From contig NZ_VKKZ01000019.1 in the NCBI RefSeq assembly GCF_008271745.1, positions 434,001 to 498,000 of the forward strand: DNA of 64,000 bases, given 5' to 3'. The stretch comes from Rufibacter glacialis (GTDB lineage: Bacteria > Bacteroidota > Bacteroidia > Cytophagales > Hymenobacteraceae). The position numbers were made by a program, and so were the translations under genes. Shown here piece by piece: positions 1,273 through 62,181 of this stretch; the first letter of the stretch is position 1, and each line of letters starts with the position of its first letter. Below the pieces are notes generated by a model that was not told the origin of the DNA, ran no database searches, and saw only the letters and a program-made list of their open reading frames with translations.

Positions 1273-1300
1273 GCCTTTTTTCCAAAACCAGCCCCTAAAC
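1273..1300 (+). repeat. Dispersed CCYTAAAC hairpin motif
   Basis: A degenerate copy: GCC, T-run, TCCAAAACCAG, then CCCCTAAAC. It ends one base before the stop of the minus-strand gene at 1302. Confidence 0.55.
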
Positions 1301-1301
1301 C

Positions 1302-1844
1302 CTACATGGTGTAAGAATCTAACCTGGTCCAGGTGATGGCACCGTTATTTACTGCGTATCTTAAAAGAAGGTAACCGCCGTTGTGCCCGTCTTCAAAGTA
1401 GGCCAGGGCGTGACGGTCGTTGAGGATACGCACATCCTGGATGGCCATGGTGCCGCCCATGGTACCGGGGGTGGTCAGCAGGGTTTTCTGTTTGCGCATG
1501 AGGTCGTTCATGAGGTCGGCTTCCGGGTTCTTCAAGCCTTTGCGTTTTAACCGCTGAATGTCGCTGTCACTCAACGAGCCTACTTCTTCCTCAAAGGTGG
1601 TGGACTCTGGCAAAGGTACTTTCTCTACTGAGTCAGGGCTTTGCAGGGGAGGCTGCACCGATTGGGTGGGCCGGAGCGAATCAATGGGGGCAGGCTGGGT
1701 AAACCGGAGCACCTGTTGCTCCAGGCTGTTGATTTTCTCGTTGGCCATGACCAACTGGCTTTCGGCCTGGCTTTGTTTCCAATAGAAGAAAATAGCCAAG
1801 AACAACAAAACGGCGATCAACAGCAAAAGAAGGGCATTTTTCAT
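1302..1844 (-). CDS. Membrane-anchored hypothetical protein
   Basis: 180 residues, not recognised as a known family. Residues 4-22 form a single hydrophobic segment (LLLLLIAVLLFLAIFFYWK), probably an uncleaved membrane anchor. A short predicted coiled coil follows (about 26-48, ANEKINSLEQQVLRF), then a Pro/Ser-rich linker (about 50-80). The rest is soluble, about 100 residues, with a run of Gly, Thr and Met (TTPGTMGGTMAIQDV) and an aromatic end (YFEDGHNGGYLLLRY). The likely topology is a small inner-membrane protein with a periplasmic domain. It stands alone on the minus strand, in the same direction as the E2 gene but separated from it by a long terminator. The start is an ATG directly before the hydrophobic segment. 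Confidence 0.75.
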   Translation of the reverse strand: MKNALLLLLIAVLLFLAIFFYWKQSQAESQLVMANEKINSLEQQVLRFTQPAPIDSLRPTQSVQPPLQSPDSVEKVPLPESTTFEEEVGSLSDSDIQRLKRKGLKNPEADLMNDLMRKQKTLLTTPGTMGGTMAIQDVRILNDRHALAYFEDGHNGGYLLLRYAVNNGAITWTRLDSYTM

Positions 1845-1969
1845 AGCGTGTGTAAAGGGTCAGGAAAGAGAATGACGTGGTAAGATAAGACTTTTACTAT
1901 GTTCTACAGGTGCGGGTTGTGCCTTTCTGTTTTCTACCGGTTTTTGACAATTCATCCCAAAAACACCTT

Positions 1970-2011
1970 CCACAAGAAAGCCCTTCCGGTAAGGGAAGGG
2001 CTTTCTTGTGG
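1970..2011 (-). terminator. Long hairpin terminator after the E2 gene
   Basis: Two 18-base perfectly complementary arms (CCACAAGAAAGCCCTTCC and its complement) around a six-base loop, 43 bases beyond the E2 stop codon on the minus strand. Confidence 0.85.
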
Positions 2012-2053
2012 TTAGAGATCATTTTCAAATCTCCCTATTGTCACATCTTCCAA

Positions 2054-3433: not shown

Positions 3434-3597
3434 ATGTATGAGTATGTCAGTTTTAGGTTAAAACAAGGATGTGATTACCCCAGTCAGGCAGGGTACAGGT
3501 CTGTACAATGTTACAGAAAAACCGTGAATGATCACTGCTTGACTGCAACTGATTCCTGTGAACCTAACCGTTGTTAGGCAAATTTAGCTTTTTTTGC

Positions 3598-4860: not shown

Positions 4861-4903
4861 TTTTGGCTTGATTTGTGCGAATGGCCTTTGGACCATCCTT
4901 GAA

Positions 4904-4911
4904 CAAAAGTA
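4904..4911 (-). promoter_or_regulatory. Candidate -7 promoter box for cinA
   Basis: Read on the minus strand this is TACTTTTG, a full match to the Bacteroidota TAnnTTTG element, 43 bases before the cinA ATG. No clear -33 TTG at ideal spacing. Confidence 0.45.
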
Positions 4912-4929
4912 ATACACATGTACGCACGT

Positions 4930-5673: not shown

Positions 5674-5692
5674 GTTTTAGCATTATGCTCAT

Positions 5693-5730: not shown

Positions 5731-6059
5731 ATGGTAGTTGAGTGAAAGAGCCATTCCCCAATATGGTGGCGCCTGTTCGTCTGGAGGAGAATCTGATAAG
5801 ATGCCTCAAGGGAAGGAGGAGGTGCCAATGGATGGGCTTTATGGTGAAGGTTGGACCGGGAAAGCCCTTGGTTAGGGCAGAATAATCACACTTAGAAACA
5901 GGTGGGCCAAAGGGTAAAGGCAGAATTTTGTTATTCTAAGAACCAGAAAGGGAGCCGGCGGATTATGGGCCTTTTTCTGAAAAAATAGGGCAAAAACGGG
6001 CCAACTTTTAAAAGGGAGGAAGGGTAAAAGGCAGGGAGTTCATTTTTGCCTCTTATTCC
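5731..6059. other. Gap upstream of the esterase gene
   Basis: No gene. It contains one degenerate copy of the dispersed hairpin motif (5967-6002). I could not place a convincing promoter. Confidence 0.6.
5967..6002 (+). repeat. Dispersed hairpin motif, divergent copy
   Basis: GGGCCTTTTTCTGAAAAAAT followed by AGGGCAAAAACGGGCC. It keeps the TTTTTC-GAAAAA core but has AGGGCAAAAAC in place of CCCTAAAC. Confidence 0.45.
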
Positions 6060-7340
6060 ATGACATATACAAAACTGCCGTACCACCGGCTGGAGAACAA
6101 AGCAGATTTAGACGTTCTGCTGGATGATATTGGAGATGCCCGTATTGTAATGCTGGGAGAAGCCTCCCACGGAACTTCAGAATACTATGCCTGGCGCACC
6201 GCCATTTCCAAACGCCTCATAGAGGAAAAAGGCTTCACGTTAATTGCGGTGGAAGGAGACTGGCCCGATTGCTACCAAATCAACAAGTTCATACGGGGTT
6301 ATGGCAAACCGGGCACCAAAGTGTCTGATGTACTCAAGCACTTCAACCGCTGGCCCACCTGGATGTGGGGCAACTGGGAAGTGGCAGCCTTGGTAGAATG
6401 GCTCAAGGAAAACAATGACCGGCCCAACACCAATAAAGTGGGCTTCTACGGATTGGACGTTTACAGCCTTTGGGACTCCCTGCAGCAGATCATGAAGTAC
6501 CTGGAGAAGAAGGATGGCCAAGCGGTGAAAGCCGCCAAGGAAGCCTTCAAATGCTTTGAGCCCTACAGCTCAGACCCGCAGGAATACGCCCGCGCGGTGG
6601 CCTACGTCTCTGAAGACTGTGAAAACGAGGTGATCTCTATGCTGCAGGAACTGGGCAAACGTGAACAGGGCGAACCTGCCAATCCTGAGGCCGTCTTTAA
6701 CGCGGAGCAGAATGCCTTGGTGGCGGTGAACGCGGAGCGCTATTACAAAGCCATGGTACGGGGTGGCGGCAGTTCCTGGAACGTGCGCGACGAGCACATG
6801 ATGGAAACCCTGAACCGCCTGCTGGAATTCCACGGACCAAACGCCAAAGCCATCATCTGGGAGCACAACACCCACATAGGCGATGCCCGCTTCACAGACA
6901 TGGCCCGCGCCGGCATGGTAAACATTGGCCAGCTGGCCCGCGAGCAGTATGGGCGCGAGAACGTATACCTGGCTGGTTTCGGGTCATACTCGGGCTCTGT
7001 GATTGCCGGCGACTCCTGGGGAGCGCCTATGAAGAAGATGGAAGTACCGCCCGCCCGCGAAGGCTCCTGGGAGCATTGGCTCCACAGCCTGGGTGCCACC
7101 GATAAGCTTCTCCTTTCCCGCGAACTGAGGGAAATCAATGAGGTACAGCAGCAGATTGCCCACCGGGCCATTGGCGTGGTCTATGACCCCAACCGCGAAA
7201 AGTACGGCAACTACGTGCCCACCATAATCCCAGAGCGCTATGATGCCTTCCTGTACCTGGACGAAACCGAAGCCTTGAGGCCCTTCATTGTTAAAACCAA
7301 AGAGAAAGAACCACCAGAAATGTATCCGGCCAACGAGTAA
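6060..7340 (+). CDS. Erythromycin esterase family protein
   Basis: 426 residues, close to the length of EreA/EreB macrolide esterases (about 400-420). The family motif GEASHGTSEYY (residues 24-34) carries the conserved Glu and His. EGDWPD holds a second conserved Glu, and WEHNTHIGDA the later conserved His. In EreB, equivalent residues form the esterase active site that opens the lactone ring of erythromycin. Chromosomal Bacteroidota members of this family are common and mostly uncharacterised, so macrolide resistance is not implied by sequence alone. There is no signal peptide, so it is cytoplasmic. It starts at an ATG 329 bases after the previous terminator and ends just before its own terminator, so it is a single-gene unit. 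Confidence 0.88.
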   Translation: MTYTKLPYHRLENKADLDVLLDDIGDARIVMLGEASHGTSEYYAWRTAISKRLIEEKGFTLIAVEGDWPDCYQINKFIRGYGKPGTKVSDVLKHFNRWPTWMWGNWEVAALVEWLKENNDRPNTNKVGFYGLDVYSLWDSLQQIMKYLEKKDGQAVKAAKEAFKCFEPYSSDPQEYARAVAYVSEDCENEVISMLQELGKREQGEPANPEAVFNAEQNALVAVNAERYYKAMVRGGGSSWNVRDEHMMETLNRLLEFHGPNAKAIIWEHNTHIGDARFTDMARAGMVNIGQLAREQYGRENVYLAGFGSYSGSVIAGDSWGAPMKKMEVPPAREGSWEHWLHSLGATDKLLLSRELREINEVQQQIAHRAIGVVYDPNREKYGNYVPTIIPERYDAFLYLDETEALRPFIVKTKEKEPPEMYPANE

Positions 7341-7424: not shown

Positions 7425-7428
7425 GCCT

Positions 7429-7454
7429 TTTAGAGGCTGATTTAGAGAAACCAG
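7429..7454 (-). repeat. Dispersed hairpin motif, reverse copy
   Basis: On the minus strand it reads CTGGTTTCTCTAAATCAG then CCTCTAAA. It pairs with the forward copy at 8283-8311 to form the outermost inverted repeat around the DUF559 gene. Confidence 0.55.
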
Positions 7455-7476
7455 CCGCAGAATGGCAAAGCAGGAG

Positions 7477-7512
7477 TTCCCTCTCCCCTGGGAGAGGGGT
7501 AGGGTGAGGGGG
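7477..7512 (-). repeat. CT-rich palindromic repeat A (outer left)
   Basis: CCCTCTCCCC TG GGAGAGGGG followed by TAGGGTGAGGGGG. It is the inverted partner of repeat D at 8226-8263; the two differ by one substitution and one inserted base. Confidence 0.85.
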
Positions 7513-7556
7513 CGGCGGCGCTCTAGGGGAGACGGCATCAAGGCTGGAACCGTTTC

Positions 7557-8048: not shown

Positions 8049-8087
8049 TTCCATTGCCATTTCCCTTAAGTAAATATTTCACGTTGT

Positions 8088-8124
8088 TCCTTCTCCCTCA
8101 GGGAGAAGGTTAGGATGAGGGGGA
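8088..8124 (-). repeat. CT-rich palindromic repeat C (inner right)
   Basis: TCCTTCTCCCTCAGGGAGAA then GGTTAGGATGAGGGG: the inverted copy of repeat B. It starts 39 bases after the DUF559 stop codon. Confidence 0.87.
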
Positions 8125-8263: not shown

Positions 8264-8282
8264 TCCTTTTCTGGCAATTTCA

Positions 8283-8311
8283 GGCCTTTTTGAGAAAATC
8301 AGCCTCTAAAC
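8283..8311 (+). repeat. Dispersed CCYTAAAC hairpin motif
   Basis: GGCCTTTTTGAGAAAATCAG then CCTCTAAAC, ending 10 bases before the stop codon of the minus-strand ABC gene. Confidence 0.6.
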
Positions 8312-8321: not shown

Positions 8322-8963
8322 TTAATGCTTTTTCCGTTCCGGGGCTTTGTAGTGGAATTCGTTGATGGGTAGTTGCTCGTCGCAGAAGCTGTATTCATGG
8401 GGTACGTTGGAGCCGATGAGGACCAGACGGTTCTGCCGGTTGCGGTCCAGGTGCTCCAGGTACCAGGCCACGCCGGCTTGGTCCAGGTTGGTGGTGGGCT
8501 CGTCTAGCAGCAGGAGCGGGGTCTCTGAGTAAAGGGCCAGCCCCAGTTTTAGGCGCTGGCGCATGCCCGAGGAGAAATCCCGTACCAGTTTGTGCCTGGC
8601 TGCCTGTAGTTGGAGAAGGTCAGGCAGTTGGGAAGGGGAGATGCCGCGCAAGGGCTTGAAACGGGTGTGGAATTGAATCATCTCCTCCAGTGTGAATTCC
8701 TCCAGTAAATCCTGGTAAGGAGCCGCCAGCGAGAGAAAGCGGTACAACTCATCAACGGGAATCTCCTTTCCTCCTGAAGAATAGGAAACTGAGCCTTCAG
8801 AGGGTAATTGGAAACCGCTCAGGATGGAAAGCAAAGTGGATTTCCCGGATCCGTTGTGCCCCAGCACGGCGTAGGCCTTGCCAGAAACAAACTCAAAGGA
8901 CAGATTCCGGAAAATCCACTCGTAATTGAAACGCTTGCCTAAAGAGGAAAGCTTAATCTGCAT
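8322..8963 (-). CDS. ABC transporter ATP-binding protein
   Basis: 213 residues, one nucleotide-binding domain without a membrane part. Walker A is GHNGSGKST (residues 35-43), the signature SSGMRQR (131-137), and Walker B LLLLDEPT with Glu155. The ATG overlaps the end of lpxA by 11 bases, so it is translated with the lipid A genes as the last gene of that operon. No permease gene is present in the window. The placement suggests a link to envelope or lipid A export, but the sequence cannot show what it moves; it may pair with a distant permease. Assignment as an ABC ATPase is certain; substrate is unknown. Confidence 0.9.
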   Translation of the reverse strand: MQIKLSSLGKRFNYEWIFRNLSFEFVSGKAYAVLGHNGSGKSTLLSILSGFQLPSEGSVSYSSGGKEIPVDELYRFLSLAAPYQDLLEEFTLEEMIQFHTRFKPLRGISPSQLPDLLQLQAARHKLVRDFSSGMRQRLKLGLALYSETPLLLLDEPTTNLDQAGVAWYLEHLDRNRQNRLVLIGSNVPHEYSFCDEQLPINEFHYKAPERKKH

Positions 8964-12189: not shown

Positions 12190-12307
12190 AAGGCAAAGTT
12201 AAGGAAACAATTTTTAACGGAGGCATGCCGCCCAGACTCAATCTGCCAGACGAGCCTAGGCTGGGACTGGGGCTCGCTGCCTGGTACGGGGAGGGGTTCG
12301 TTTCGAC

Positions 12308-12340
12308 GTTGTTTCCTGAAAAGAACGGTAAAACAGAGGC
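12308..12340 (+). repeat. Dispersed hairpin motif, divergent copy
   Basis: GTTGTTTCCTGAAAAGAACG then GTAAAACAGAGGC; core preserved, flank diverged. Confidence 0.45.
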
Positions 12341-16970: not shown

Positions 16971-17668
16971 CCCTCCTGTTAAAAAGGACATCAGCCCTCT
17001 CTTGAAAAGCTCTTGGTTGATGCTCCAACCTGTTCTGGCATTTGTGCCAAACCCACGCGTCCTGCGTCACCGGGTGAACCCAGTCACCTTAACTTACTTA
17101 TTCTTCTGCCTTCTTTTTCAAGGGAGCGAACGGCGCTCAAAATGGAGCTGCCGTGCCGCTGCCCTTTTGGGATTTGCCCGCACTGGCCAAAAGGTATAGG
17201 GCGGTTGCCCCTCAAAACCTCTCTGCTTTTGCGGTTCCCCTAAGAAACAAGGCCAAAAATCCAAGCTGAAACCAACAGCCAGGCACCACTGCCTCTGGAA
17301 GGCCGCCAGGGTTCACAATCTGGCAAAAGGCAGGGTGAGTCGCCTTGGTTTCTTGTATTTGCCGCTCAAGCAAGAGTCTGCGTTGTGGCCGCCCTCCGTT
17401 TCAAGGCTGTTTCCAAGAAAATAGCCCTGAAACGGAGGACAGTCTTAGTCTTGTTAACATTTTGTAAAAATAAACCGGTCAATTTGGGTAAAAAATGCGG
17501 TTTTTTCATTTGTTAACGGATCCATCATACTTAGGAAACATTTGATACACATGCCCTCCTGAGGCTCTCCTTACCTTCAACCTGTCAATTTCTGGGCCTC
17601 GGCGACGCTTGTAACCAAGCCAGGGCCTCTACCAGAAAGCACCCAAACCACCCTTACGTTACTGTCTA
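16971..17668. other. Long gap before the xyloglucan operon
   Basis: No credible gene; short frames here lack family resemblance. It holds one dispersed hairpin copy (17405-17438). The AT-rich stretch from 17450 to 17560 is the likeliest place for the operon promoter and the regulator binding site, but no motif is clear enough to mark. Confidence 0.55.
17405..17438 (+). repeat. Dispersed hairpin motif
   Basis: GGCTGTTTCCAAGAAAATAG then CCCTGAAACGGAGG. Confidence 0.55.
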
Positions 17669-29516: not shown

Positions 29517-29536
29517 AAGACCCTTCCTAGGTTTTC

Positions 29537-29567
29537 GGGCTGTTTTACCAGAAACGGCCAGAAACCC
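29537..29567 (+). repeat. Dispersed hairpin motif
   Basis: GGGCTGTTTTACCAGAAACG then GCCAGAAACCC, 20 bases after the GH2 stop. Confidence 0.5.
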
Positions 29568-29716
29568 AAGAAACCGTCTGCCTCCCGCAAGCTGCCTGGC
29601 AACCGCCCCAGCGAACCCAGGTTGCAGTCCCCCGGATTAAGCGCCTACTTAAAGACAAGGAGGTGGGGCTTTATCCCTCACTGTTTAAAAACCCGCCCGC
29701 AACTAGCACTTGATTA

Positions 29717-29751
29717 GAGCCTGATTTCCAGAAAACGGGCCTTAAACAGCA
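29717..29751 (+). repeat. Dispersed CCYTAAAC hairpin motif, strong copy
   Basis: GAGCCTGATTTCCAGAAAAC then GGGCCTTAAACAGCA, ending 23 bases before the GH95 start codon. Confidence 0.65.
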
Positions 29752-32195: not shown

Positions 32196-32482
32196 GAAAG
32201 GAGGCTTGAAAAGGGAAATGGCTTCGGCTGCCCTCTGGAGATTTTGTCTGCGATTAACATTTTGATCGGTGATCAGATACAATTGGTGCATTCCTGTCAA
32301 CTGGCAGGCATCTACCTTTACCACAGCAAAGTGCCTTGGTTTATAGCCTATTCCCAGAAAACAGGCCCTAAACCAAGGAGGCCAACTGAATCAGGTTCCT
32401 GGTGAAACTTTCTTTATCCTTTCTAAAGCGCATGGTACAACGTGACACAACGTGGATTCCCTCCAAGGTTTTAAAGAAGACG
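32196..32482. other. Gap between GH95 and GH74
   Basis: No gene. It carries one strong dispersed hairpin copy (32345-32378); no terminator is seen, so GH74 may be read through from GH95. Confidence 0.55.
32345..32378 (+). repeat. Dispersed CCYTAAAC hairpin motif, strong copy
   Basis: AGCCTATTCCCAGAAAACAG then GCCCTAAACCAAGG. Confidence 0.65.
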
Positions 32483-37284: not shown

Positions 37285-37417
37285 TTACCGTCAGTGTTGG
37301 ATGGGGCTCATTGTTAAGGCTGTTGAAGTAGGGCGTTGAGTTTTAATCGCCCCACTTACTTTTACCTGGTCTGAGAAATGCCAGGGGGGTGAGTTACTCA
37401 TAAGCCGGCCTTTTATG

Positions 37418-37452
37418 GTTGTTTTCCTGAAAAGAAGTCCTAAAAAGACCTG
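37418..37452 (+). repeat. Dispersed hairpin motif
   Basis: GGTTGTTTTCCTGAAAAGAA then GTCCTAAAAAGACC. Confidence 0.5.
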
Positions 37453-47684: not shown

Positions 47685-47752
47685 GGGTGGTTGGGTTAGA
47701 ACTGCTTCAGGTGCGGGTGGTGTGGTCAACAACGACGCAGAAGGTTGTTTGA

Positions 47753-47787
47753 CGCCTGTTTTTAAGGAAACAGCCTTAAAACAGACG
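47753..47787 (+). repeat. Dispersed hairpin motif, strong copy
   Basis: CGCCTGTTTTTAAGGAAACA then GCCTTAAAACAGACG, ending five bases before the stop of the HD-domain gene. Confidence 0.65.
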
Positions 47788-49179: not shown

Positions 49180-50742
49180 ATGCAAAGATATACTATTTTG
49201 TGGGCGGACGACGAGATTGACCTGCTCAAGCCGCATATTCTCTTCTTAACCGATAGGGGCTATGACATTACTCCCGTGAACAGCGGGGCCGATGCCGTGG
49301 AGAAGGTGCAGGAGCAAACCTTTGACCTCGTGTTCCTTGATGAGAACATGCCTGGCCTGAGCGGTCTGGAGGCCCTGAGTGAGATCAAAGCCGCCCGGCC
49401 TTCGTTGCCCGTGGTCATGATCACCAAAAGCGAGGAAGAGCACATCATGGAAGAGGCCATCGGGTCTAAAATAGCCGATTACCTCATCAAGCCTATCAAC
49501 CCCAACCAGATCCTGCTGTCCATCAAGAAGATACTGGACAACCGCCGCCTGGTAGAGGAAAGAACCAACAGCTCGTACCAACGCGATTTCAGAACCTTGG
49601 GCATGGCCTTCGGCGAGCGCCTGAGTTACCAGGAATGGGCCGATGTGTACAAGAAACTGGTGTTCTGGGAACTGGAGATTGCAGACACTGAGGGCAAGAG
49701 CATGGCTGAGGTGATCAACATGCAGAAAGACGAAGCCAACACCAACTTCGCCAAGTTCATCATGGACAACTACGAGGAATGGGTGAACGATGAGACCGAC
49801 GAGATTCCGTTGATGTCGCATAAGCTGTTCAAAGACCGCGTGTTCCCCCTGATGAAGGAAAGCGACGCGCCGGTGTACTTTGTCTTGATTGACAACCTGC
49901 GCTATGACCAGTGGAAGGTGCTGGAGCCTATCATCACCGATTACTTCAACGTGGACAACGAGGAGATGTACTATTCCATCCTGCCTACCACCACCGCCTA
50001 CGCCCGTAACGCCATTTTCTCTGGCATGCTGCCCGCCGACATCGCCAAGCGCTACCCCAACCTGTGGGTTTCTGACGACGAGGAGGAAGGCAAGAACCTG
50101 CACGAAGAGGATTTTCTGGAAATCCAGCTGCAGCAGAACAACATCAAGGACAAGTTCAGCTACCACAAGATCACCAACAACAACGCCGGCAAAGAGCTCC
50201 TGGCCAAATTCAACAACCTGGAGAACAACAAGCTCAACGTGATCGTCTACAACTTCGTGGACATGCTCTCGCACGCGCGCACAGACATGCAGATGATCAG
50301 GGAACTGGCCGCCGATGAGGCTGCTTACCGTTCTCTGACCCGCTCCTGGTTTATGCATTCGCCCCTGTTTGACACCCTCAAAGCCATTGCTGACCGCAAA
50401 GGCCGCCTCATCATCACCACCGACCACGGTACCGTGCGGGTGAAAAAGCCGTTCAAGATTGTGGGCGACCGCAACACCAACACCAACCTGCGCTACAAGC
50501 ACGGCAAAAACCTGGGCTTCACTGAGAAAGATGTGCTGGTGTGCCGTAAGCCGGAGCGTTTTCACCTGCCCAAGAGCAACGTGTCTACGGCCTACGTCTT
50601 CGCCATGAACGACGATTTCTTCGCCTATCCCAACAATTACAACTATTACGTGAACCACTACAAAGACACGTTCCAGCACGGCGGCGTATCTTTGGAGGAG
50701 TGTATCATTCCATTTATCACACTTTCCACTAAAAATGCCTGA
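49180..50742 (+). CDS. porX: PorX, response regulator of type IX secretion
   Basis: Regulates the T9SS and gliding apparatus in Bacteroidota. 520 residues, nearly the length of Porphyromonas gingivalis PorX (518). Residues 1-125 are a receiver domain with acidic pair Asp10/Asp11, phospho-acceptor Asp54 in VFLDENMPG and Lys in DYLIKP. A helical linker follows, then an alkaline-phosphatase-superfamily (PglZ) domain: FVLIDNLRYDQWKVLEP, LPTTTAYARNAIFSG, and the metal-ligand motif ITTDHGTVRVKKP. The start is the ATG at 49180; the frame is open upstream from 49057 but that part is not family-like. It overlaps tsaE by eight bases. Its presence agrees with the T9SS sorting domain on GH74. Confidence 0.95.
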   Translation: MQRYTILWADDEIDLLKPHILFLTDRGYDITPVNSGADAVEKVQEQTFDLVFLDENMPGLSGLEALSEIKAARPSLPVVMITKSEEEHIMEEAIGSKIADYLIKPINPNQILLSIKKILDNRRLVEERTNSSYQRDFRTLGMAFGERLSYQEWADVYKKLVFWELEIADTEGKSMAEVINMQKDEANTNFAKFIMDNYEEWVNDETDEIPLMSHKLFKDRVFPLMKESDAPVYFVLIDNLRYDQWKVLEPIITDYFNVDNEEMYYSILPTTTAYARNAIFSGMLPADIAKRYPNLWVSDDEEEGKNLHEEDFLEIQLQQNNIKDKFSYHKITNNNAGKELLAKFNNLENNKLNVIVYNFVDMLSHARTDMQMIRELAADEAAYRSLTRSWFMHSPLFDTLKAIADRKGRLIITTDHGTVRVKKPFKIVGDRNTNTNLRYKHGKNLGFTEKDVLVCRKPERFHLPKSNVSTAYVFAMNDDFFAYPNNYNYYVNHYKDTFQHGGVSLEECIIPFITLSTKNA

Positions 50743-51214
50743 TCCGGGACTGCGCCAGCATAATCTCCATATCTTTACAAAAGCCGATTTACCCCAGGCC
50801 GCCGCTGATTTTTTGTCATTTATCGGGCAAAAAAAGATAATTTTGTTTGAGGGTGAGATGGCGGCCGGTAAAACCACCTTTATCAAGGCGATATGCGCCC
50901 AGAAGGGGGTGCGGGAACCGGTGAGCAGCCCCTCTTTCTCGCTCGTGAACGAGTACGAAACCGCCAATGGGGAACTCATTTACCATTTTGATTTTTATAG
51001 GATCAATGAGGAGGCCGAGGCTCTGGACATGGGAGCGCTGGAGTATTTCAGTTCCGGCAACCTGTGTCTCATTGAATGGCCTTCTAAGGTGGTAAACCTG
51101 TTGCCAGACGAAGGGGTGGAGGTACGGATAGAAACCGGTGACACCGAAGAAGCGCGTATCATTAGTATGAGAGTATATGATGGAGGAAATGACGGAGAAG
51201 AACAGCGGGTTTGA
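50735..51214 (+). CDS. tsaE: tRNA threonylcarbamoyladenosine biosynthesis ATPase
   Basis: Part of the TsaBDE complex that makes the t6A base at position 37 of ANN-decoding tRNAs. 159 residues, slightly long for the family (about 140-155). The P-loop is GEMAAGKTTFIKAI (residues 35-48; the more usual form is GELGAGKTT). Then come the conserved SPSFSLVNEYE and the FDFYRINEEAEALDMG segment, and a Walker-B-like LCLIEWPSKV. It starts inside the porX end (eight-base overlap) and its own end overlaps the ald start by 38 bases, so porX, tsaE and ald form a tight, translationally linked operon. Confidence 0.94.
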   Translation: MPDPGLRQHNLHIFTKADLPQAAADFLSFIGQKKIILFEGEMAAGKTTFIKAICAQKGVREPVSSPSFSLVNEYETANGELIYHFDFYRINEEAEALDMGALEYFSSGNLCLIEWPSKVVNLLPDEGVEVRIETGDTEEARIISMRVYDGGNDGEEQRV

Positions 51215-52418
51215 GGCCCTGACCAAGGCCACGGCCCGCAGTCTGATGCCCAAAGAGTCAATGTTGGCGGTGGAGACGCGCAAGCGCAACCTGTTTATCG
51301 GTCTGCCCAAAGAGTCGTCTTTACAGGAAAATCGCATTGGCCTCACCCCTGAAGCCGTGAAACAACTCACCGACCACGGCCACGAAGTCTGGATAGAATC
51401 CGGGGCCGGGGCACCCTCTAAATACTCAGACCACGAATACTCAGAGGCGGGTGGCGTGATCGTCTATTCCACCAAAGAGGTCTATGAGGCGGATATCCTG
51501 CTCAAGATTGCCCCGCCTACCTATGATGAACTGGAGTTTTTCAAGCCTGGCCAAACCCTTATCTCAGCATTGCAGATAGGCTCCCTTACCTCAGAGTACA
51601 TCACGGCCCTCTGCCGGAAGAAAATAAGCGCGATCTCTTTTGAACTGCTGAAAGACAAATCAGACACCAAGCCGGTAGTGCGGGCCATGAGTGAGATTGC
51701 CGGCAGCACTGTCATGTTGATTGCCGCCGAGTACCTGAGCAGCAGCAATGAAGGCAAAGGCGTGATCCTGGGCGGTATTACCGGGGTTCCTCCCTCCAAA
51801 GTTGTCATTATTGGCGCAGGCACCGTGGCCGAATACGCCACCCGGGCCGCCCTGGGGCTAGGGGCCGAGGTAAAGGTCTTTGACGACCACCTCTACAAGC
51901 TGCGCCGCCTCAAACAGAACGTGGGTACCCAACTTTTCACCTCTACGTTAGACCACACCATCCTGCACAAAGAGATTCAGGATGCCGACGTGGTCATTGG
52001 CGCCATCACCGCCGAGGACGGGCAGGTGCCCTGCATGATTGCGGAAGAAGTGGTTTCCAAGATGAACCCCGGCTCCGTGATCATTGATGTGAGCATTGAC
52101 GAAGGCGGCTGTTTTGAGACCTCAGAGATGACCACCCACAAACGGCCCATTTACCGCAAGTATGACGTGATCCATTACTGCGTACCCAATATCCCTTCCC
52201 GGGTGCCCCGCACCGCCACCAAAGCCCTGAGCAACATCTTTACACCCATGTTCCTGGAGATCTCCAAGTACGGCGGCGTGAACGAGGCGCTCTTCACCCA
52301 TGAGCATTACCGCAGCGGTGTTTACATCTACAAAGGCAGCCTCACCAACGCCTCTATCGCCAAGAAATTCAACATGCGCTACAAGGAGCTGAGCCTCATG
52401 ATTGCCGTGCGGAATTAA
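51177..52418 (+). CDS. ald: Alanine dehydrogenase
   Basis: Catalyses NAD-dependent interconversion of alanine and pyruvate plus ammonia in the cytoplasm. 413 residues. The N-terminal substrate domain contains GLPKESSLQENRIGLTPEAV and DILLKIAPPTYDE with a conserved Lys. The Rossmann fold follows at VVIIGAGTVAEYATRAALGLG with Asp in KVFDD closing the nucleotide site. DVSIDEGGCFETSEMTTH is a family signature. The predicted N-terminus is about 30 residues longer than typical enzymes and overlaps tsaE by 38 bases. A start at one of the later Met codons (for example residue 24 or 29) would remove most or all of the overlap. A long terminator follows. Confidence 0.92.
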   Translation: MMEEMTEKNSGFEALTKATARSLMPKESMLAVETRKRNLFIGLPKESSLQENRIGLTPEAVKQLTDHGHEVWIESGAGAPSKYSDHEYSEAGGVIVYSTKEVYEADILLKIAPPTYDELEFFKPGQTLISALQIGSLTSEYITALCRKKISAISFELLKDKSDTKPVVRAMSEIAGSTVMLIAAEYLSSSNEGKGVILGGITGVPPSKVVIIGAGTVAEYATRAALGLGAEVKVFDDHLYKLRRLKQNVGTQLFTSTLDHTILHKEIQDADVVIGAITAEDGQVPCMIAEEVVSKMNPGSVIIDVSIDEGGCFETSEMTTHKRPIYRKYDVIHYCVPNIPSRVPRTATKALSNIFTPMFLEISKYGGVNEALFTHEHYRSGVYIYKGSLTNASIAKKFNMRYKELSLMIAVRN

Positions 52419-52500: not shown

Positions 52501-52513
52501 GGTTTTATGGAGT

Positions 52514-52586
52514 GTAGGGGCGATCCCTTGTGGTTGCCCTTGTTCGTTCATAAACGTGAAGGGCAACCACCAAGGATTGCCCCTAC
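52514..52586. repeat. Imperfect inverted repeat with 28-base arms
   Basis: Left arm 52514-52541 starts GTAGGGGCGATCC. Right arm 52559-52586 is its complement with few mismatches. A 17-base spacer lies between. No T-run follows. I recall similar GTAGGGGCGA palindromes as dispersed repeats in several phyla. Confidence 0.75.
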
Positions 52587-52594
52587 CTGATTTA

Positions 52595-52626
52595 ACCCTG
52601 TTTTCCGGAAAACAACCCTAAAGTGG
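52595..52626 (+). repeat. Dispersed CCYTAAAC hairpin motif, strong copy
   Basis: ACCCTGTTTTCCGGAAAACA then ACCCTAAAGTGG; the core GTTTTCCGGAAAAC is a perfect palindrome. Confidence 0.65.
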
Positions 52627-52637: not shown

Positions 52638-52668
52638 CAGCCTGTTTTTCCTAGAACAGGCCAGAACC
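52638..52668 (+). repeat. Dispersed hairpin motif
   Basis: CAGCCTGTTTTTCCTAGAAC then AGGCCAGAACC. Confidence 0.55.
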
Positions 52669-52680
52669 GGCTAAGCGGAA

Positions 52681-52716
52681 TTCCTTCTCCCTCAGGGAGA
52701 AGGGTAGGATGAGGGA
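52681..52716 (-). repeat. CT-rich palindromic repeat, isolated copy
   Basis: TTCCTTCTCCCTCAGGGAGA then AGGGTAGGATGAGGG: the same family as repeats A-D around the DUF559 gene, here without a gene. Confidence 0.8.
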
Positions 52717-52851
52717 GATGCCGGCCATGCCGTAATGGCAAAAAAGGCACAGAAGGAACTTCCGCGCCATAGAAAATTCACCATAGGTGGAAGGCGATAG
52801 TTGGTGACAAACATCTTGTATTCTAGACCACTACCTTATTCTCCTGTTTTA

Positions 52852-52883
52852 AACCTGTTTTTCAAAAAAAAGGCCCTAAACAA
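52852..52883 (+). repeat. Dispersed CCYTAAAC hairpin motif, strong copy
   Basis: AACCTGTTTTTCAAAAAAAA then GGCCCTAAACAA, ending one base before the flavin reductase stop codon. Confidence 0.65.
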
Positions 52884-52884: not shown

Positions 52885-53796
52885 TTAACCTTTTTTAGGC
52901 AAAGTAAGGGTCAACAACGCTTTCCAAGCCTCAAGGGTGCGGCCTTCCTCCAGCAGCTTCTTGGCTAACAGGTGAACCTGCCGTTCCGCTTCTTTGGGGT
53001 TGTGCTGGTGCGTTTGGAGCAGGTACCGGTACATGGGCTCATTCGCGAATTCCTGGACCTCAGCTGGGGTGGGCAGGGTAGTGGTGTTGCCCAAACGGGC
53101 CAGGTTGTTGCCCGTGAGCACGGCGCTGTTGCGGATGTGGGCCGGAAGCTGGTCTACCCCAATCCCTTGGTTCTGGAGCGGTTTGGGTAGTTCAAACATG
53201 CAGTCTCCCTGAGCCCGCAGGTACCAATCGCCGCCCAGGCGGGCCACGGCGTCAAGTTTAGCCGGGTCAATGGTTTTGCCATCGGTGCCGAAAACCTCTT
53301 CTTTCACGTGCAGCAGCACCGCCTCGCAAATGACCAGGTTGGCCGCGCCGCCTTGCTCGCCCATGGGTTTCACCTCCAGTACCTTGCACTCAAAGGCAGC
53401 CGGGGCCTCGGCTACGCGGGGCGGTTTCACCAGCGTTGAAGCCACGGGGGTAAGTCCCGCCTTCACAAATTCATTTACCCCTTTGTCATACTCGGTGCTG
53501 GCCAAAGACATCTGCTCCACCATGGCGTAGTTGCCTATGTTGATGACCACCTCGCCGGTTTCCAGCACGTTTTCCAGGGTGTGTTTGCCGGTATTGTCGC
53601 GCACGCGGCGGGCGGGGGAGAAGATGAGGATGGGCGGGTTGGAGCCGAAGCAGTTGAAGAAGCTGAAAGGGCTCAGGTTCACATTCCCTTCCTTGTCCAC
53701 CGTACTGGCAAACGCAATGGGCCGGGGCGCAATGGTCCCCAACATGAGGCTATGGAACGCACCGGTGGTACTATCTTTAGGGTTGAAGGTTCTCAC
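52885..53796 (-). CDS. Flavin reductase family protein
   Basis: Flavin-binding protein of the DIM6/NTAB split-barrel family, which reduces or binds FMN; substrate unknown. The body begins at RTFNPKDSTTGAFHSLMLG and includes APRPIAFASTVDKEGNVNLSPFSFFNCF and PPILIFSPARR, the FMN-binding core. The C-terminal third is helical (EVQEFANEPMYRYLL). I place the start at the GTG at 53796, giving 303 residues. The frame stays open to 53931, but the extra 45 residues are translated repeat DNA (ISSSSHLQILHIS) and not part of the protein. The upstream gene fahA runs the same way, about 190 repeat-filled bases away. Confidence 0.88.
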   Translation of the reverse strand: MRTFNPKDSTTGAFHSLMLGTIAPRPIAFASTVDKEGNVNLSPFSFFNCFGSNPPILIFSPARRVRDNTGKHTLENVLETGEVVINIGNYAMVEQMSLASTEYDKGVNEFVKAGLTPVASTLVKPPRVAEAPAAFECKVLEVKPMGEQGGAANLVICEAVLLHVKEEVFGTDGKTIDPAKLDAVARLGGDWYLRAQGDCMFELPKPLQNQGIGVDQLPAHIRNSAVLTGNNLARLGNTTTLPTPAEVQEFANEPMYRYLLQTHQHNPKEAERQVHLLAKKLLEEGRTLEAWKALLTLTLPKKG

Positions 53797-53802
53797 ATGA
53801 TT

Positions 53803-53990
53803 CAAATTTGGAGATGAGGAGATTTGAAGATGGGGAGATGTGTAAAATTTGGAGATGTGTAAAATTTGGAGATGTGAAGATGAGGAGATTTGGAAATGTG
53901 ATAAATGATGAATGAATTCGGGCAAGACCAATAATACCTTACTCTAATTCATTAATCTTCACATCTCCAAATTTCCACATCTTCAAATCT
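53803..53990. repeat. Tandem and inverted AT-rich repeat block
   Basis: A 17-base unit, GGAGATGTGTAAAATTT, occurs twice in tandem (53834-53850, 53851-53867), with degenerate GGAGATTTGAAGATG units on both sides. The sequence 53958-53988 (CATCTCCAAATTTCCACATC region) is the inverted complement of these units, so the block can fold back. The right end overlaps the last codon of fahA. Confidence 0.8.
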
Positions 53991-55836: not shown

Positions 55837-55960
55837 AGTTTTAGTCTATAGGGCAGGGCATTTTCGTTGCGATTTTTGAAAAAGCTGGAAGTTTCCTTCC
55901 GCCTGCGTCATGAGACACCGGAAACCCGCGTTAGTTTCAAGTTCAGGATTTTTCGTTTTT

Positions 55961-55996
55961 AACCTGTTTTTCAGAGAAAAGCCCAAAAACAGAGGC
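55961..55996 (+). repeat. Dispersed hairpin motif
   Basis: AACCTGTTTTTCAGAGAAAA then GCCCAAAAACAGAGGC. Its right end overlaps the terminator at 55990. Confidence 0.6.
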
Positions 55997-57446: not shown

Positions 57447-57475
57447 ACGTTGTTCAGCGCTAAAATCCGCTACTA

Positions 57476-57483: not shown

Positions 57484-57522
57484 CACACTATCTGCGTAAC
57501 AAGCTACCAGTAGCTGTTTTAA

Positions 57523-57556: not shown

Positions 57557-57976
57557 TTTCTAAAAAGGAGGTGCAACCATAGGGTTGAGAAGAGGTAATT
57601 GCATACTGGAAGCAACAGATATTTTTATGTAGGTTTCTGCTGTTCTTTTTTCAGGCAGTCATTGTAATTACCCACAGAAAACTCTTTCATGTTTATGAGG
57701 CATTCCTGATTCTCTGATTTAACTCTCCGCCTTATAAGGATATTTATTATCCTGTTTTATGCCAAAATACCCGGTTTGTTTTTGGTATTTGTATTCTTTA
57801 GATTTAGACTCTTTAAATCCATTATCTTTTGCATTAAAAATTCTAATAGAGTGTGAGGCCAAATCCAGATCAAAAAATTACATATAGACTTGTATTTACT
57901 CATTAATTTTGAATATGCGTTCAGGTGATTTTTATAAAAGGTGTTCTATTCAGTTTAATTAAATCAAATATTATTT

Positions 57977-58897: not shown

Positions 58898-58939
58898 TCC
58901 AAATCCGTGTTTTAAGAGTGGTGAACCTGACCCGTTCCC

Positions 58940-58965
58940 AAGCCAGCCCCAAAGGCTGGCTTTTT
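58940..58965. terminator. Terminator after the two-module lipoprotein
   Basis: AAGCCAGCC and GGCTGGCTT arms, five-base loop, T-run. Confidence 0.9.
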
Positions 58966-59038
58966 AATGCCCCCCCTTCGCCTAAATTTCCCTGCCATTC
59001 TATAACTGGTTCAGTCACCAACTAATCTCCATTCCGGC

Positions 59039-59046
59039 TATCTTTG
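59039..59046 (+). promoter_or_regulatory. -7 promoter box for dnaG
   Basis: TATCTTTG, a full TAnnTTTG match, 27 bases before the ATG at 59074. No ideal -33 TTG. Confidence 0.6.
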
Positions 59047-59073
59047 TCTACCGCCCTATTTTCCTGCGTACCC

Positions 59074-61068
59074 ATGGCCCTGATAAAGAAAGAAGTTGTT
59101 GACCAGATCATCCTGCAAGCCGACATTGTGGAGGTAGTGGGTGATTTTGTGAGTTTGAAGAAGAAGGGCCAGAACATGTGGGCGTGCTGCCCGTTCCACC
59201 ATGAGAAGTCGCCCTCGTTCAGCGTGGCACCCAACAAAGGCATTTACAAATGCTTCGGGTGCGGCAAGGCGGGCAACTCTGTGCAGTTCATCATGGACGT
59301 GGAAGGCACCAGCTACGTGGAGGCACTCAAGTACCTGGCCAAGAAGTACAGCATTGACATTGAGGAAGACCAGAGCCCGGCGGCGGTGCAGGCCCAGAAC
59401 GAGCGTGACAGCCTTTACATCCTCTCCGATTTCGCCAAAAAGTACTATGTAAACGCCCTCCATAAAAACGACGAAGGCCAGAGCATAGGCGCGCCGTATT
59501 TCAAGCAGCGCGGGCTCTCGGCGGCCACCATCCAGAAGTTTGAGCTGGGCTACAGCCTTGACTCCTGGGATGATTTCACCAAGGCGGCGCTGGAAAAAGG
59601 CTTCCTTTTGAAATACCTGGAGGAAACCGGCCTCACCATTGTCAAGCAGGAAGAAGGCAAGCAGTATGACCGGTTCCGGGGACGGGTCATGTTCCCCATC
59701 CAGAACGTCTCAGGCCGTACCATCGGGTTTGGCGCGCGTACCCTTAAAACCAACGACAAGAAATCCCCAAAGTACGTCAACTCGCCGGAGTCGCCCATCT
59801 ACCACAAGTCTGATGTGCTGTACGGCATGTACCAGGCCAAGCAATCCATCCGGCAGGAAGACAACTGCTACCTGGTGGAAGGCTACCTGGATGTGCTTTC
59901 CCTGCACCAGGGCAGCATTGAGAACGTGGTGGCCTCGTCGGGTACGTCGCTCACCGAGAACCAGATCAAACTCATTGGCCGCTACACCAAGAACATCACG
60001 GTGTTGTATGATGGTGACCCCGCCGGGATTAAGGCCTCTTTACGCGGAATTGACCTGATTCTGGAAGGCGGCCTGAACGTGAACGTAGTCCTGTTCCCCG
60101 ATGGCGATGACCCGGACTCCTACATCCGGAAAGTGGGTGACACCGCTTTTAAAGACTATCTGGAGAAAAACAGCCGGGACTTCATTTCCTTTAAGGCAGA
60201 GCTCTTCGCGCAGGAGGCCAAAGACAACCCGGTGAAGAAAGCCGAGGCGATCCGGGAAATGGTGGTCTCTATTGCCAAGATCCCCGATGCCATCAAGCGG
60301 TCCGTGTTCCTGCAGCAGTGTAGCCTGCAGTTCGGGATAGACGAGCAGGTGCTGATCTCTGAGTACAACAAAATTCACCTCACGGAGCAGAAAAACTCCC
60401 GGTCCCAACCTTCTCAGGGTTCATCTTACGGGAATTCCCCGGCTTCTTACGCTCCCGGCTCTTTTGAGGAAATGGCCGCTGAAGCCGAGGCCGCCGCTGC
60501 TGCCGAGGCCGCCATGTACGAAGACGAGGGCGCGCCGGAGGCCGACCAAAGCAACGTGCTCCGGGTGCGGGAGCGGGAGGTGATCCGGTTTATCCTGAAC
60601 TACGCCGACAAAGAGGTGGAAGAAGGCCTCACCGCCAGCCAGTTCATGCTGGGCGAGCTGGAAGACATTGAGTTTAAGACCCCTATTTACAAAAAGCTGT
60701 TCGATCTGTGCCGCCTCAAACTAGAGCAGGGGTTTATGCCCACCGCCTCTGAGTTCATGCAGCACGAGGAAAAGGAAATCCGCACGGAAGTGGTGGATTT
60801 GCTGAGCGAGAAATACGAGTTGAGCAAAGGCTGGGCCACCCATGAGATCATCGTACCCCACGAAAGTGATCTGGTTTCTTACGGTTCTGAACGGGAGGTG
60901 CTGCGGCTGAAGTGGCGCAACGTGCAGCTTATGATCAAAGAACAGATGGATACCCTTCCCCGCCTCAAGGAGGCGCAGGAATTAGACAAGACCCTCCGCA
61001 CCATCAAGGCGCTCAAAGAATTTGAAAAACAGATAGCTGATCTACTGGGTATAGTGGTGAGCAGATGA
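59074..61068 (+). CDS. dnaG: DNA primase
   Basis: Makes RNA primers for chromosome replication. 664 residues from the ATG at 59074; an earlier in-frame start at 59044 overlaps the promoter box. The N-terminal CHC2 zinc finger has Cys39, His42, Cys60 and Cys63 (CPFH and KCFGCG). The catalytic core has RFRGRVMFPIQN and GRTIGFGARTL. The TOPRIM motifs are EGYLDVLSLHQ and YDGDPAGIKAS, followed by FPDGDDPDSYI. A Ser/Ala/Glu-rich linker near 450-490 (AAEAEAAAAAEAAMYEDEG) leads to the C-terminal helicase-binding domain. The stop overlaps the next start by four bases (ATGA). Confidence 0.96.
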   Translation: MALIKKEVVDQIILQADIVEVVGDFVSLKKKGQNMWACCPFHHEKSPSFSVAPNKGIYKCFGCGKAGNSVQFIMDVEGTSYVEALKYLAKKYSIDIEEDQSPAAVQAQNERDSLYILSDFAKKYYVNALHKNDEGQSIGAPYFKQRGLSAATIQKFELGYSLDSWDDFTKAALEKGFLLKYLEETGLTIVKQEEGKQYDRFRGRVMFPIQNVSGRTIGFGARTLKTNDKKSPKYVNSPESPIYHKSDVLYGMYQAKQSIRQEDNCYLVEGYLDVLSLHQGSIENVVASSGTSLTENQIKLIGRYTKNITVLYDGDPAGIKASLRGIDLILEGGLNVNVVLFPDGDDPDSYIRKVGDTAFKDYLEKNSRDFISFKAELFAQEAKDNPVKKAEAIREMVVSIAKIPDAIKRSVFLQQCSLQFGIDEQVLISEYNKIHLTEQKNSRSQPSQGSSYGNSPASYAPGSFEEMAAEAEAAAAAEAAMYEDEGAPEADQSNVLRVREREVIRFILNYADKEVEEGLTASQFMLGELEDIEFKTPIYKKLFDLCRLKLEQGFMPTASEFMQHEEKEIRTEVVDLLSEKYELSKGWATHEIIVPHESDLVSYGSEREVLRLKWRNVQLMIKEQMDTLPRLKEAQELDKTLRTIKALKEFEKQIADLLGIVVSR

Positions 61069-62090
61069 ACTGGCGCCGGCTGAAACTGTACCGGTTCATG
61101 TGGGCCTTCTGGCTCATCATTGCCAGTCTGGTCACCGGTATGTACGGGTATCATACGCTGGAGGGCTACACTTGGTCAGAAGCCTTCTATATGACGGTGA
61201 TCACTATTTCCACCACCGGGTTTCAGGAAGTGCACCCGCTCTCCTCCACCGGCCAGATTTTCACCTCTATCTATATTCTGGTCAATTTGGGCATCATCAC
61301 CTACACCGTATCAGTGGTGACTACGTATCTTTTTGAGGGGGAATTAAGGGCCCTTTGGAAGAACTATATGAACGAACGGGAGATCAAGCGCTTCACTGAC
61401 CACGTGATTGTATGCGGCTACGGCCGAAACGGCTCCAAAGCCACCCGCGACCTGCTGGCCTGCGGCGAACGGATTGTGGTGATTGAGAAAAACCAAGCCC
61501 TGCTGGCGGGCAAATCAAATGGCCAGGATAAATTGAGTTTTCTGTCTGGTGACGCCACCGAAGACGAACTGCTCATCAAGGCGGGGGTGCAGCAAGCCAA
61601 ATCCTTGATCTCCACGCTGCCCAAAGACTCAGACAACGTTTTTGTGACCCTTACCGCCCGGGGCTTGAACCCAAAACTGCAGATCATCTCCCGGGCCTCA
61701 GAAAAGACCACGGAGCAGAAATTGAAAAGGGCGGGGGCCAATTACGTGGTCATGCCTGATGAGATTGGCGGCAGCCACATGGCCAGCCTGATCACACAGC
61801 CCGAGGTCATCCATTTCCTGGAGTTGCTCAACGGCACCGGCCCCAACAAACTGCACCTGGAAGAAGTACACCTTGACCGCCTGCACCAGGATCTGCGTGG
61901 TCTATCCATCAAGGAACTGGACCTCAGGAACCTGACCGGCGCCACCCTCATTGGCCTCAACCGCAACGGCAAGGAGTTCCTGATCAGTCCGGAAGTCGAG
62001 ATCCGCCTTCAGGCCGGCGACATCCTTATCCTGCTGGGTTCTCGCGCCCAGATGAAGCGTTTCGCGCAGCTATTCTACACTGAAGAGTAA
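61065..62090 (+). CDS. Potassium channel with RCK (TrkA) domains
   Basis: 341 residues. Two transmembrane helices (about 11-30 and 66-92) flank a pore helix and filter TISTTGFQE (48-54), where most potassium channels have TVGYGD. The change to TTGFQE is seen in some bacterial channels but could change selectivity. From about 112 a Rossmann RCK domain begins at VIVCGYGRNGSKATRDLL, with Glu in VVIEKN. A TrkA-C-like domain follows from about 265 (LRNLTGATLIGLNRNG; LQAGDILILLGS). It would be a ligand-gated inner-membrane channel. It overlaps dnaG by four bases, so the two are co-translated although functionally unrelated. Confidence 0.9.
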   Translation: MNWRRLKLYRFMWAFWLIIASLVTGMYGYHTLEGYTWSEAFYMTVITISTTGFQEVHPLSSTGQIFTSIYILVNLGIITYTVSVVTTYLFEGELRALWKNYMNEREIKRFTDHVIVCGYGRNGSKATRDLLACGERIVVIEKNQALLAGKSNGQDKLSFLSGDATEDELLIKAGVQQAKSLISTLPKDSDNVFVTLTARGLNPKLQIISRASEKTTEQKLKRAGANYVVMPDEIGGSHMASLITQPEVIHFLELLNGTGPNKLHLEEVHLDRLHQDLRGLSIKELDLRNLTGATLIGLNRNGKEFLISPEVEIRLQAGDILILLGSRAQMKRFAQLFYTEE

Positions 62091-62144
62091 AAGAGGGGAT
62101 AGGAGAAGGGGCTTCGGCTTGTAGAAGGAGCGCTTTGTCACCCG

Positions 62145-62181
62145 TTCCTGTTTAGGGGAGCTTTTCAGCAAAGCAGCAGAA
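62145..62181 (-). repeat. Dispersed hairpin motif, reverse copy
   Basis: On the minus strand: CTGCTTTGCTGAAAAGCTCC then CCTAAACAGGAAC, 54 bases after the channel stop codon. Confidence 0.5.

What the first reader, a model, noticed from the sequence alone, without database searches (positions are those of the whole stretch)
1273..62181. About 19 copies of an intergenic hairpin motif with a conserved CCYTAAAC flank
I see a recurring element of about 28-36 bases. Its core is CCTGTTTTYCNRGAAAACAG, often able to fold, followed on one side by GCCYTAAAC. Copies start at 1273, 5967, 7429 (reverse), 8283, 12308, 12603, 17405, 29537, 29717, 32345, 37248, 37418, 47753, 52595, 52638, 52852, 55961, 57523 and 62145 (reverse). 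All are outside genes. In roughly half, the CCYTAAAC end lies within about 120 bases of the gene edge it faces, and several end 1-10 bases from a stop codon. 17 of 19 share one orientation. I read the plus strand first, so reverse copies may be under-counted. It is not a classic terminator (no T-run) and has no coding capacity. It could be an RNA-processing or transcription-end signal, a protein-binding site, or a miniature repeat moved by a distant enzyme. I know of no named family that matches.
Basis: seen in the sequence. Interest (0 to 1): 0.82.

Follow-up and report, generated by a model that had tools for sequence, protein, structure and literature searches.

The report
Rufibacter-wide mirrored repeat at gene ends
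Bacteria of the genus Rufibacter carry roughly a hundred to well over a thousand copies of a short mirror-image DNA element, mostly just after gene ends, often at places shared between species but spelled in each species' own dialect, which points to an unknown factor that reads it.

Summary
The window holds 19 copies at <=9 of 34 mismatches, reversed pattern 0. All 16 genomes of the genus carry 95-1695; of 82 other genomes 79 carry none, three carry one.

Copies avoid genes and peak 20-40 nt after stop codons. In one syntenic region of eight species, offsets from orthologous stop codons agree within 3 nt in 39% (shuffled 10%), yet in the three most uniform genomes copies resemble each other more than their orthologs (few sites per pair).

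6-23% of copies have paired outer arms; one such site is a covarying hairpin in 15 genomes. In the remainder the arms pair little or no better than shuffled.

RAYT-driven mobility, uptake sequences and target-site duplication found no support. I read it as the site of an unidentified dyad-binding factor at transcript ends, partly co-opted as terminators; the factor is inferred. It resembles untagged REPs; nine literature searches found no description.

The parts
1266..1300 (.). dyad copy; starts one base after the stop codon of gene 1302-1844 (-); site at the same offset (+19) in 6 of 6 species
   Evidence: 5 mismatches of 34; orthologs
5961..5997 (.). dyad copy between genes ending 5673 (+) and starting 6060 (+)
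   Evidence: 8 mismatches
7428..7463 (.). dyad copy after gene 6060-7340 (+)
   Evidence: 9 mismatches
8277..8311 (.). dyad copy at the 3' end of gene 8322-8963 (-)
   Evidence: 8 mismatches
12300..12334 (.). dyad copy between divergent genes
   Evidence: 9 mismatches
   Evidence: 9 mismatches
17398..17433 (.). dyad copy with paired outer arms, between tandem genes
   Evidence: 5 mismatches; R1 53 bits
27031..27064 (.). weak dyad-like match overlapping the start of gene 27054-29516; may be chance
   Evidence: 9 mismatches
29531..29565 (.). dyad copy after gene 27054-29516 (+)
   Evidence: 9 mismatches
29712..29747 (.). dyad copy before gene 29775 (+)
   Evidence: 3 mismatches
32339..32373 (.). 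dyad copy between tandem genes
   Evidence: 5 mismatches
37410..37445 (.). dyad copy after gene 34971-37184 (+)
   Evidence: 7 mismatches
   Evidence: 8 mismatches
47747..47782 (.). dyad copy at the 3' end of gene 47793-49031 (-)
   Evidence: 6 mismatches
   Evidence: 8 mismatches
52589..52624 (.). dyad copy between convergent genes
   Evidence: 8 mismatches
52846..52881 (.). dyad copy at the 3' end of gene 52885-53796 (-)
   Evidence: 6 mismatches; site near this gene end in 8 of 8 species
55955..55990 (.). dyad copy in an intergenic region
   Evidence: 9 mismatches
62150..62185 (.). dyad copy between convergent genes ending 62090 (+) and 62330 (-)
   Evidence: 8 mismatches

Best explanation
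The element is a genus-wide (Rufibacter) dyad placed mainly at the 3' ends of transcription units. Most copies are kept because a symmetric, sequence-reading factor, most likely an as yet unidentified dimeric DNA-binding protein, recognises each half (GTTTnnGGSCYnnTTT) in double-stranded DNA and marks or blocks the boundary between neighbouring transcripts. Since both halves are read alike, it works in either direction. A change in the factor's preference would pull the sites of a genome to a new dialect in place. A minority of copies also sit inside a longer paired stem, some followed by a T-run, and serve as the stem of an intrinsic terminator. Shown: dyad anatomy, genus restriction, 3'-end placement, positional conservation in one region, dialects, constraint on the skeleton, a covarying hairpin at one site. 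Inferred: the protein, the boundary role, how dialects change.
For: Half-sites come in pairs at fixed spacing: at <=2 mismatches 217 of 234 (G005), 88 of 89 (G013), 103 of 104 (G014), partner arm allowed up to 7 mismatches. Over all copies, mean core mismatches between arms equal the shuffled value in G005, G011, G013, G014 and within noise G015. Skeleton positions are kept between G004 and G015 (82-83% identical, gaps 0.3-0.7%) better than 25-nt flanks (68%, 1.8-2.3%) and other intergenic DNA (65%, 11.5-13.5%), while free positions are not (67-69%). Peak 8.2 per kb at 20-40 nt after stops; 34 of 40 convergent regions occupied in G005. No arm preference with transcription, 226 to 225. Offsets conserved between species, 39% against 10% shuffled. 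Genus-restricted. Covarying hairpin at one gene end.
Against: No binding protein was identified or searched for systematically. Core pairing is above shuffled in G000, G004 and G006 (z -4.9, -4.5, -2.8 in mismatches), and nearly perfect cores (<=1 mismatch) are in excess in every genome (z 1.4 to 13.4), which favours hairpins for part. Arm haplotypes, identical-arm excess and repeated identical 36-mers (8 in G005, 7 in G013) look like copying. About 50 bits per site in G005 (inflated by selection on the pattern) far exceed the roughly 12 bits that 1359 sites in 4.8 Mb would need. 17 of 45 divergent regions of G005 also hold an element. The own genome is a degenerate case, so function there may be fading.
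Confidence: 0.4

Rival explanations
1. A REP-like non-autonomous mobile repeat (untagged REP or fused-end MITE) that spread early in the genus, is copied now and then from a master sequence of each species (hence dialects), and survives where it does no harm, after gene ends.
For: High copy, palindromic, extragenic. Arms carry haplotypes; identical arms occur together more than expected (AGGGGCTG with itself 12, expected 3.7, in G005; TGGGGCTC 6, expected 1.3, in G013); 154 distinct of 168 and 59 of 69 36-mers; identity of identical cores falls to background a few bases outside. The centre is asymmetric in G005. Elements also lie in divergent regions.
Against: Positions are conserved between species while the dialect differs. 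No target duplications. No clean empty site in the 12 of 43 alignments read. RAYT number does not follow copy number: G007 has 897 copies and no RAYT, G013 1689 and 6, G005 1359 and 1. RAYT flanks are not enriched: 12 single-arm hits in 32 loci of about 3.2 kb, against 71 in 800 kb of the own genome; that pattern misses other dialects. One RAYT locus (L051) does have an element about 200 bases away. No autonomous copy with half-site ends was seen among single half-sites of G005. G014 has 68 distinct of 68.
Confidence: 0.3
2. It is simply this genus's intrinsic terminator: an RNA hairpin whose stem sequence is constrained for reasons of folding or RNA polymerase preference.
For: Location after stop codons. 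Covarying 24-pair stem at one gene end, 17 pairs changed on both sides, score 0.556 against 0.171 shuffled; 12 of its 15 sequences show four or more T at the stem foot (read by eye). 6-23% of copies have paired outer arms, expected 1-3% (10% in G013). T-tailed hairpins found only at the element in 58 of 261 convergent ends with an element (pooled).
Against: In the remaining copies the core arms are as mismatched as, or more than, shuffled arms. G005 consensus flanks are CGCAAA, not T-rich, on the 3' side. Separate terminators coexist with the element in 74 of 261 convergent ends, against 64 of 157 without. The site one base after a stop codon in 6 species has poor pairing (mean 10.8 of 16). 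Sister genera use ordinary terminators.
Confidence: 0.2
3. It is a DNA uptake sequence, spread by biased transformation and drafted into terminators.
For: Species dialects, inverted pairs at gene ends and terminator co-option are known for uptake sequences (PMC1852404, passages; PMC3630211, listing). It would explain homogenisation in place.
Against: Single half-sites are almost absent: at <=2 mismatches 17 of 234 (G005), 1 of 89 (G013), 1 of 104 (G014); in coding DNA 3, 2 and 0. The unit is a 36-nt dyad at fixed spacing, not a 9-12 nt word.
Confidence: 0.05

Closest known systems
REP / BIME repetitive extragenic palindromes (GTAG- and CGTC-tagged families; PMC3733652, passages)
   Same: Short, palindromic, extragenic, high copy, some transcribed as hairpins.
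   Different: No GTAG/CGTC tag, symmetric dyad, no RAYT link, each half conserved for its sequence, positions kept while the dialect changes. That paper itself notes REP-like families without terminal motifs and says many more likely occur.
DNA uptake signal sequences forming terminators in Neisseria and Pasteurellaceae (PMC1852404, passages)
   Same: Genus- or species-specific abundant word, inverted pairs after genes, part of them acting as terminators, dialects.
   Different: Half-sites do not occur singly or in genes; the unit is a fixed-spacing 36-nt dyad.
Intrinsic (Rho-independent) terminators
   Same: Place after stop codons; a minority have an extended stem, some with a T-run, and one site covaries across the genus.
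   Different: Most copies lack pairing beyond chance and many lack a T-run; the sequence itself is constrained.
REPIN sequence populations (PMC8049555, listing and start of abstract)
   Same: Populations of palindromic sequences that persist in genomes for long times.
   Different: No RAYT link here, and dialect replacement at orthologous positions.

Membership tests
REP (RAYT-associated) | short extragenic palindrome in high copy | tested here: met
   95-1695 copies per genome; 2 of 176 in genes in G005
REP (RAYT-associated) | GTAG or CGTC tag at one end | tested here: not met
   consensus ends GTTT/AAAC on both sides in 8 species; definition from PMC3733652 passages
REP (RAYT-associated) | linked to a Y1 (TnpA-REP) transposase gene | tested here: not met
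   flanks of 32 loci not enriched, 12 single-arm hits in 8 loci, pattern blind to some dialects; G007 has 897 copies and no Y1 match
DNA uptake sequence | single copies throughout, genes included | tested here: not met
   half-sites nearly always paired and outside genes in three species
DNA uptake sequence | promotes DNA uptake | not testable with these tools
   needs a transformation assay
Intrinsic terminator | GC-rich hairpin kept by covariation | tested here: inconclusive
   met at one site in 15 genomes, not met for most copies
Intrinsic terminator | T-run after the stem | tested here: inconclusive
   T-tailed hairpin only at the element in 58 of 261 convergent and 39 of 313 tandem ends with an element (pooled)
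MITE / insertion-sequence remnant | target-site duplications | tested here: not met
   no offset or length with a consistent excess in four genomes; isolated z values of 3-6 rest on one to five copies
MITE / insertion-sequence remnant | autonomous relative with the same ends | tested here: inconclusive
   none among single half-sites in 480 kb of G005; rest of the genomes not examined
Any Rfam 15 family | match at gathering score | tested here: not met
   0 in the window and in 80 kb of three relatives
Dyad site of a dimeric DNA-binding protein | two alike half-sites, each conserved without pairing | tested here: met
   for the majority of copies; core pairing above shuffled in G000, G004, G006
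Dyad site of a dimeric DNA-binding protein | a protein that binds it | not tested
   no candidate identified

The most novel reading that the evidence does not exclude
A genus-specific boundary system: one fast-changing dimeric protein recognises hundreds to well over a thousand dyads at the 3' ends of transcription units, and the sites of a genome follow its changing specificity in place, giving species dialects at shared positions; in the clade of this window (G000 and its sister G009, the two genomes with the fewest copies) the system is fading.
Probability: 0.22. Interest if true: 0.85.

Novelty: new variant of a known kind. Interest (0 to 1): 0.62.

Why it matters
How hundreds to thousands of dispersed short sites change their consensus together while staying at the same places is an open problem, known from uptake sequences and REPs but tied there to known machinery. 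Here 16 genomes with distinct dialects, a simple skeleton, graded copy numbers (95-1695) and matched gene ends give a natural series for finding the factor and for testing in-place drive against selection. If the dyads set transcript boundaries, Rufibacter would have a way of ending or insulating transcripts that nearby genera lack.

Tried and rejected
Replichore polarity: the listing showed G004:C1 hits almost all on the + strand. Sampled stretches gave 28 +, 18 -, 3 equal, and reverse hits at 161068, 364699, 995128 and 1005447 exist that the listing left out, so it was an artefact of a partial listing.

Absence in G013, G014 and G007: suggested by the single-arm pattern (0, 3 and 8 hits), wrong. 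They carry 1689, 1103 and 897 copies of the skeleton, G013 and G014 in other dialects.

RAYT mobility: not supported by flanks and counts. Uptake sequence: rejected on half-sites. Target duplications: none consistent. An insertion sequence with half-site ends: the single half-sites of G005 turned out to be elements with a decayed or asymmetric second arm.

Pure hairpin: rejected for most copies, kept for a minority. My first reading of complete independence of the arms had to be softened after the haplotype tables and whole-arm shuffles.

Gene calls come from a simple hexamer caller written here, not a standard program: start codons are approximate, and some 'in gene' and 'divergent' calls may be wrong. 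The terminator detector is also mine and simple (shuffled sequence gave 4 of 418 convergent ends).

Literature: searches found no paper on this repeat; 'Rufibacter' with 'repeat' and 'intergenic' gave 0 papers, 'Rufibacter' with 'palindrom' gave 2 unrelated ones. I saw passages of PMC3733652 and PMC1852404, the abstract, outline and passages of PMC12306157, and only search listings for the rest.
Full report
WHAT IS THERE. The window is G000:C10:434001-498000 of a 5.3-Mb genome. With a two-arm pattern (34 positions, some degenerate) the window has 19 copies at <=9 mismatches, the reversed pattern 0. The own-genome sample (864 kb, window included) has 233 against 3, G005 (400 kb) 176 against 0, G004 (400 kb) 127 against 1. 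That is 270, 440 and 318 per Mb; extrapolated, about 1,400 in the own genome.

WHO HAS IT. The skeleton at <=2 mismatches and a fixed centre gives 95-1695 copies in each of 16 genomes of the genus. Among 82 others (44 of the same family, 38 of the same order) 79 have none and 3 have one. The reversed control is 0 in all but one genome, which has 1. A capped scan of named genomes (80 of 118 stretches listed) gave Rufibacter records and one named Sabulibacter ruber. Samples of five sister genera (120 kb) hold no dyad and show ordinary terminator-like palindromes. One viral contig has an exact match. Rfam has none.

WHERE IT SITS. In called genes lie 23 of 233, 2 of 176 and 9 of 127 (G000, G005, G004). 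In G005 it occupies 34 of 40 convergent, 76 of 127 tandem and 17 of 45 divergent intergenic regions of 50 nt or more; in G004 25 of 39, 51 of 126, 14 of 39; in G000 47 of 91, 104 of 270, 22 of 92. Pooled over 8 species, density is 8.2 per kb at 20-40 nt after stop codons, 0.8-2.6 per kb from 120 to 400 nt, and 0.24 per kb within 20 nt of starts. Neither arm is favoured with respect to transcription (226 to 225 of 484). At one orthologous gene end the element begins one base after the stop codon in 6 of 6 species.

DIALECTS AT SHARED POSITIONS. Half-site consensus differs by species: roughly GCGTTTAGGGGCTSTTTTT in G005, CGTTTTTGGCCTGTTTTC in G014, CCGTTTTSGGGCTCATTTC in G013, looser forms in G000, G004, G011, G015. 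In one syntenic region (20-80 kb per species, 8 species), 255 comparisons of orthologous gene ends with a site in both gave offsets within 3 nt in 39%, against 10% (maximum 16%) with shuffled partners. Of the halves at conserved positions, 64-100% per species pair fit their own species' profile better than the partner's. Within-genome identity is 0.77, 0.90 and 0.77 in G005, G013 and G014 (32, 6 and 9 elements), above every orthologous comparison of those three (0.57-0.78; only 1-5 elements per pair). In degenerate genomes (G000, G004, G015) within-genome identity is 0.58, and orthologs of the close pair G004/G015 are more alike (0.78, n=10), as expected where homogenisation has stopped. On a tree of a 4.6-kb region (no support values examined, midpoint root) G000 and G009, with the fewest copies, are sisters; G007 and G014, alike at the site compared, are sisters; a GTTTAGGG form at that site occurs in G005 and G008, which are not.

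CONSTRAINT IN PLACE. Between G004 and G015 (19-20 sites) the fixed positions are 82-83% identical, the free positions 67-69%, 25-nt flanks 68%, other intergenic DNA 65%; gap rates are 0.3-0.7% at fixed positions, 1.8-2.3% in flanks and 11.5-13.5% elsewhere between genes. Of 43 presence/absence cases the 12 best-aligned were printed and read: mostly threshold effects in aligned DNA, no clean insertion.

HAIRPIN OR PROTEIN SITE. Within the core most variable positions pair about as often as expected from column composition, a clear exception being position 12 in G000 and G004. Whole arms against shuffled arms: mean core mismatches equal the shuffled value in G005, G011, G013, G014 and, within noise, G015, and are lower in G000, G004 and G006 (z -4.9, -4.5, -2.8); nearly perfect cores are in excess to some degree in all eight (z 1.4-13.4). 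Copies with outer arms paired (<=2 of 8 mismatches) make up 6-23% per genome (expected 1-3%, 10% in G013) and have better paired cores (1.0-3.1 mismatches against 2.9-5.7). Arms carry haplotypes, and identical arms go together more than expected in G005 and G013. So there appear to be two populations: a minority of true hairpins and a majority in which each half is kept for its sequence. Half-sites are seldom found alone.

A HAIRPIN SHOWN BY COVARIATION. After the alanine-dehydrogenase/PNT-like gene (window 51177-52418; Pfam) all 16 genomes have a site centred 49-81 nt after the stop. G001's locus ends inside it, so 15 were compared. A 24-pair stem has 96.4% of cells paired, 17 pairs with changes on both sides and a covariation score of 0.556 against 0.171 shuffled (0 of 500); slid controls reach at most 0.138. 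By eye, 12 of the 15 have four or more T at the stem foot; G000 (the window), G007 and G014 do not. I chose this site after seeing it; it is the best paired of 20 orthologous sites, not a typical one. Over five genomes my simple detector finds a T-tailed hairpin only at the element in 58 of 261 convergent ends with an element, and a separate one in 74 of 261, against 64 of 157 ends without an element and 9 of 24 in sister genera; in tandem ends 39 and 45 of 313, against 65 of 360 and 9 of 39 (pooled by me).

INTERPRETATION. Genus restriction, abundance and palindromic form make it REP-like. But it lacks the REP tag, shows no Y1 transposase link and no target duplications, and has stayed in place while its sequence changed with the species. 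It is not an uptake sequence by the half-site test. The reading that fits most is a dyad read by a sequence-specific factor at 3' ends, with part of the copies drafted as terminators. What argues for a copying process instead (haplotypes, repeated identical 36-mers, excess information, asymmetric centre in G005) is set out above.

Noticed in passing
window 52513-52586, 52640-52715, 53806-53900: Other dispersed repeats beside the dyads: short extra matches to these stretches appear many times; those to 52513-52586, mostly on both strands, in at least 10 of 16 genomes of a capped listing.
   Followed up: partly
window 7476-7513, 8087-8124, 52681-52718: Three copies of a TTCTCCCTCAGGGAGAAGG-type palindromic repeat.
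   Followed up: no
L051, L115, L119, L121 (Y1 transposase loci): These RAYT-like genes seem to carry their own, different palindromes on their flanks (for example AAGTTACCGCTTCGCTCAAACTTG, GGATTTGCAATCC), read by eye.
   Followed up: partly
G005 stretches L093, L095, L097, L101, L105, L106, L108: An asymmetric variant: one good arm (GTTTAGSGGCTCTTTTTCC) facing a different, recurring second arm (about GAATTAGCCTAAAACCAG).
   Followed up: partly
window 49180-50742 (+): Response-regulator receiver domain fused to a PglZ domain.
   Followed up: no
window 53797-53906: Short tandem-like GAGATTTGAAGATG repeat between genes.
   Followed up: no
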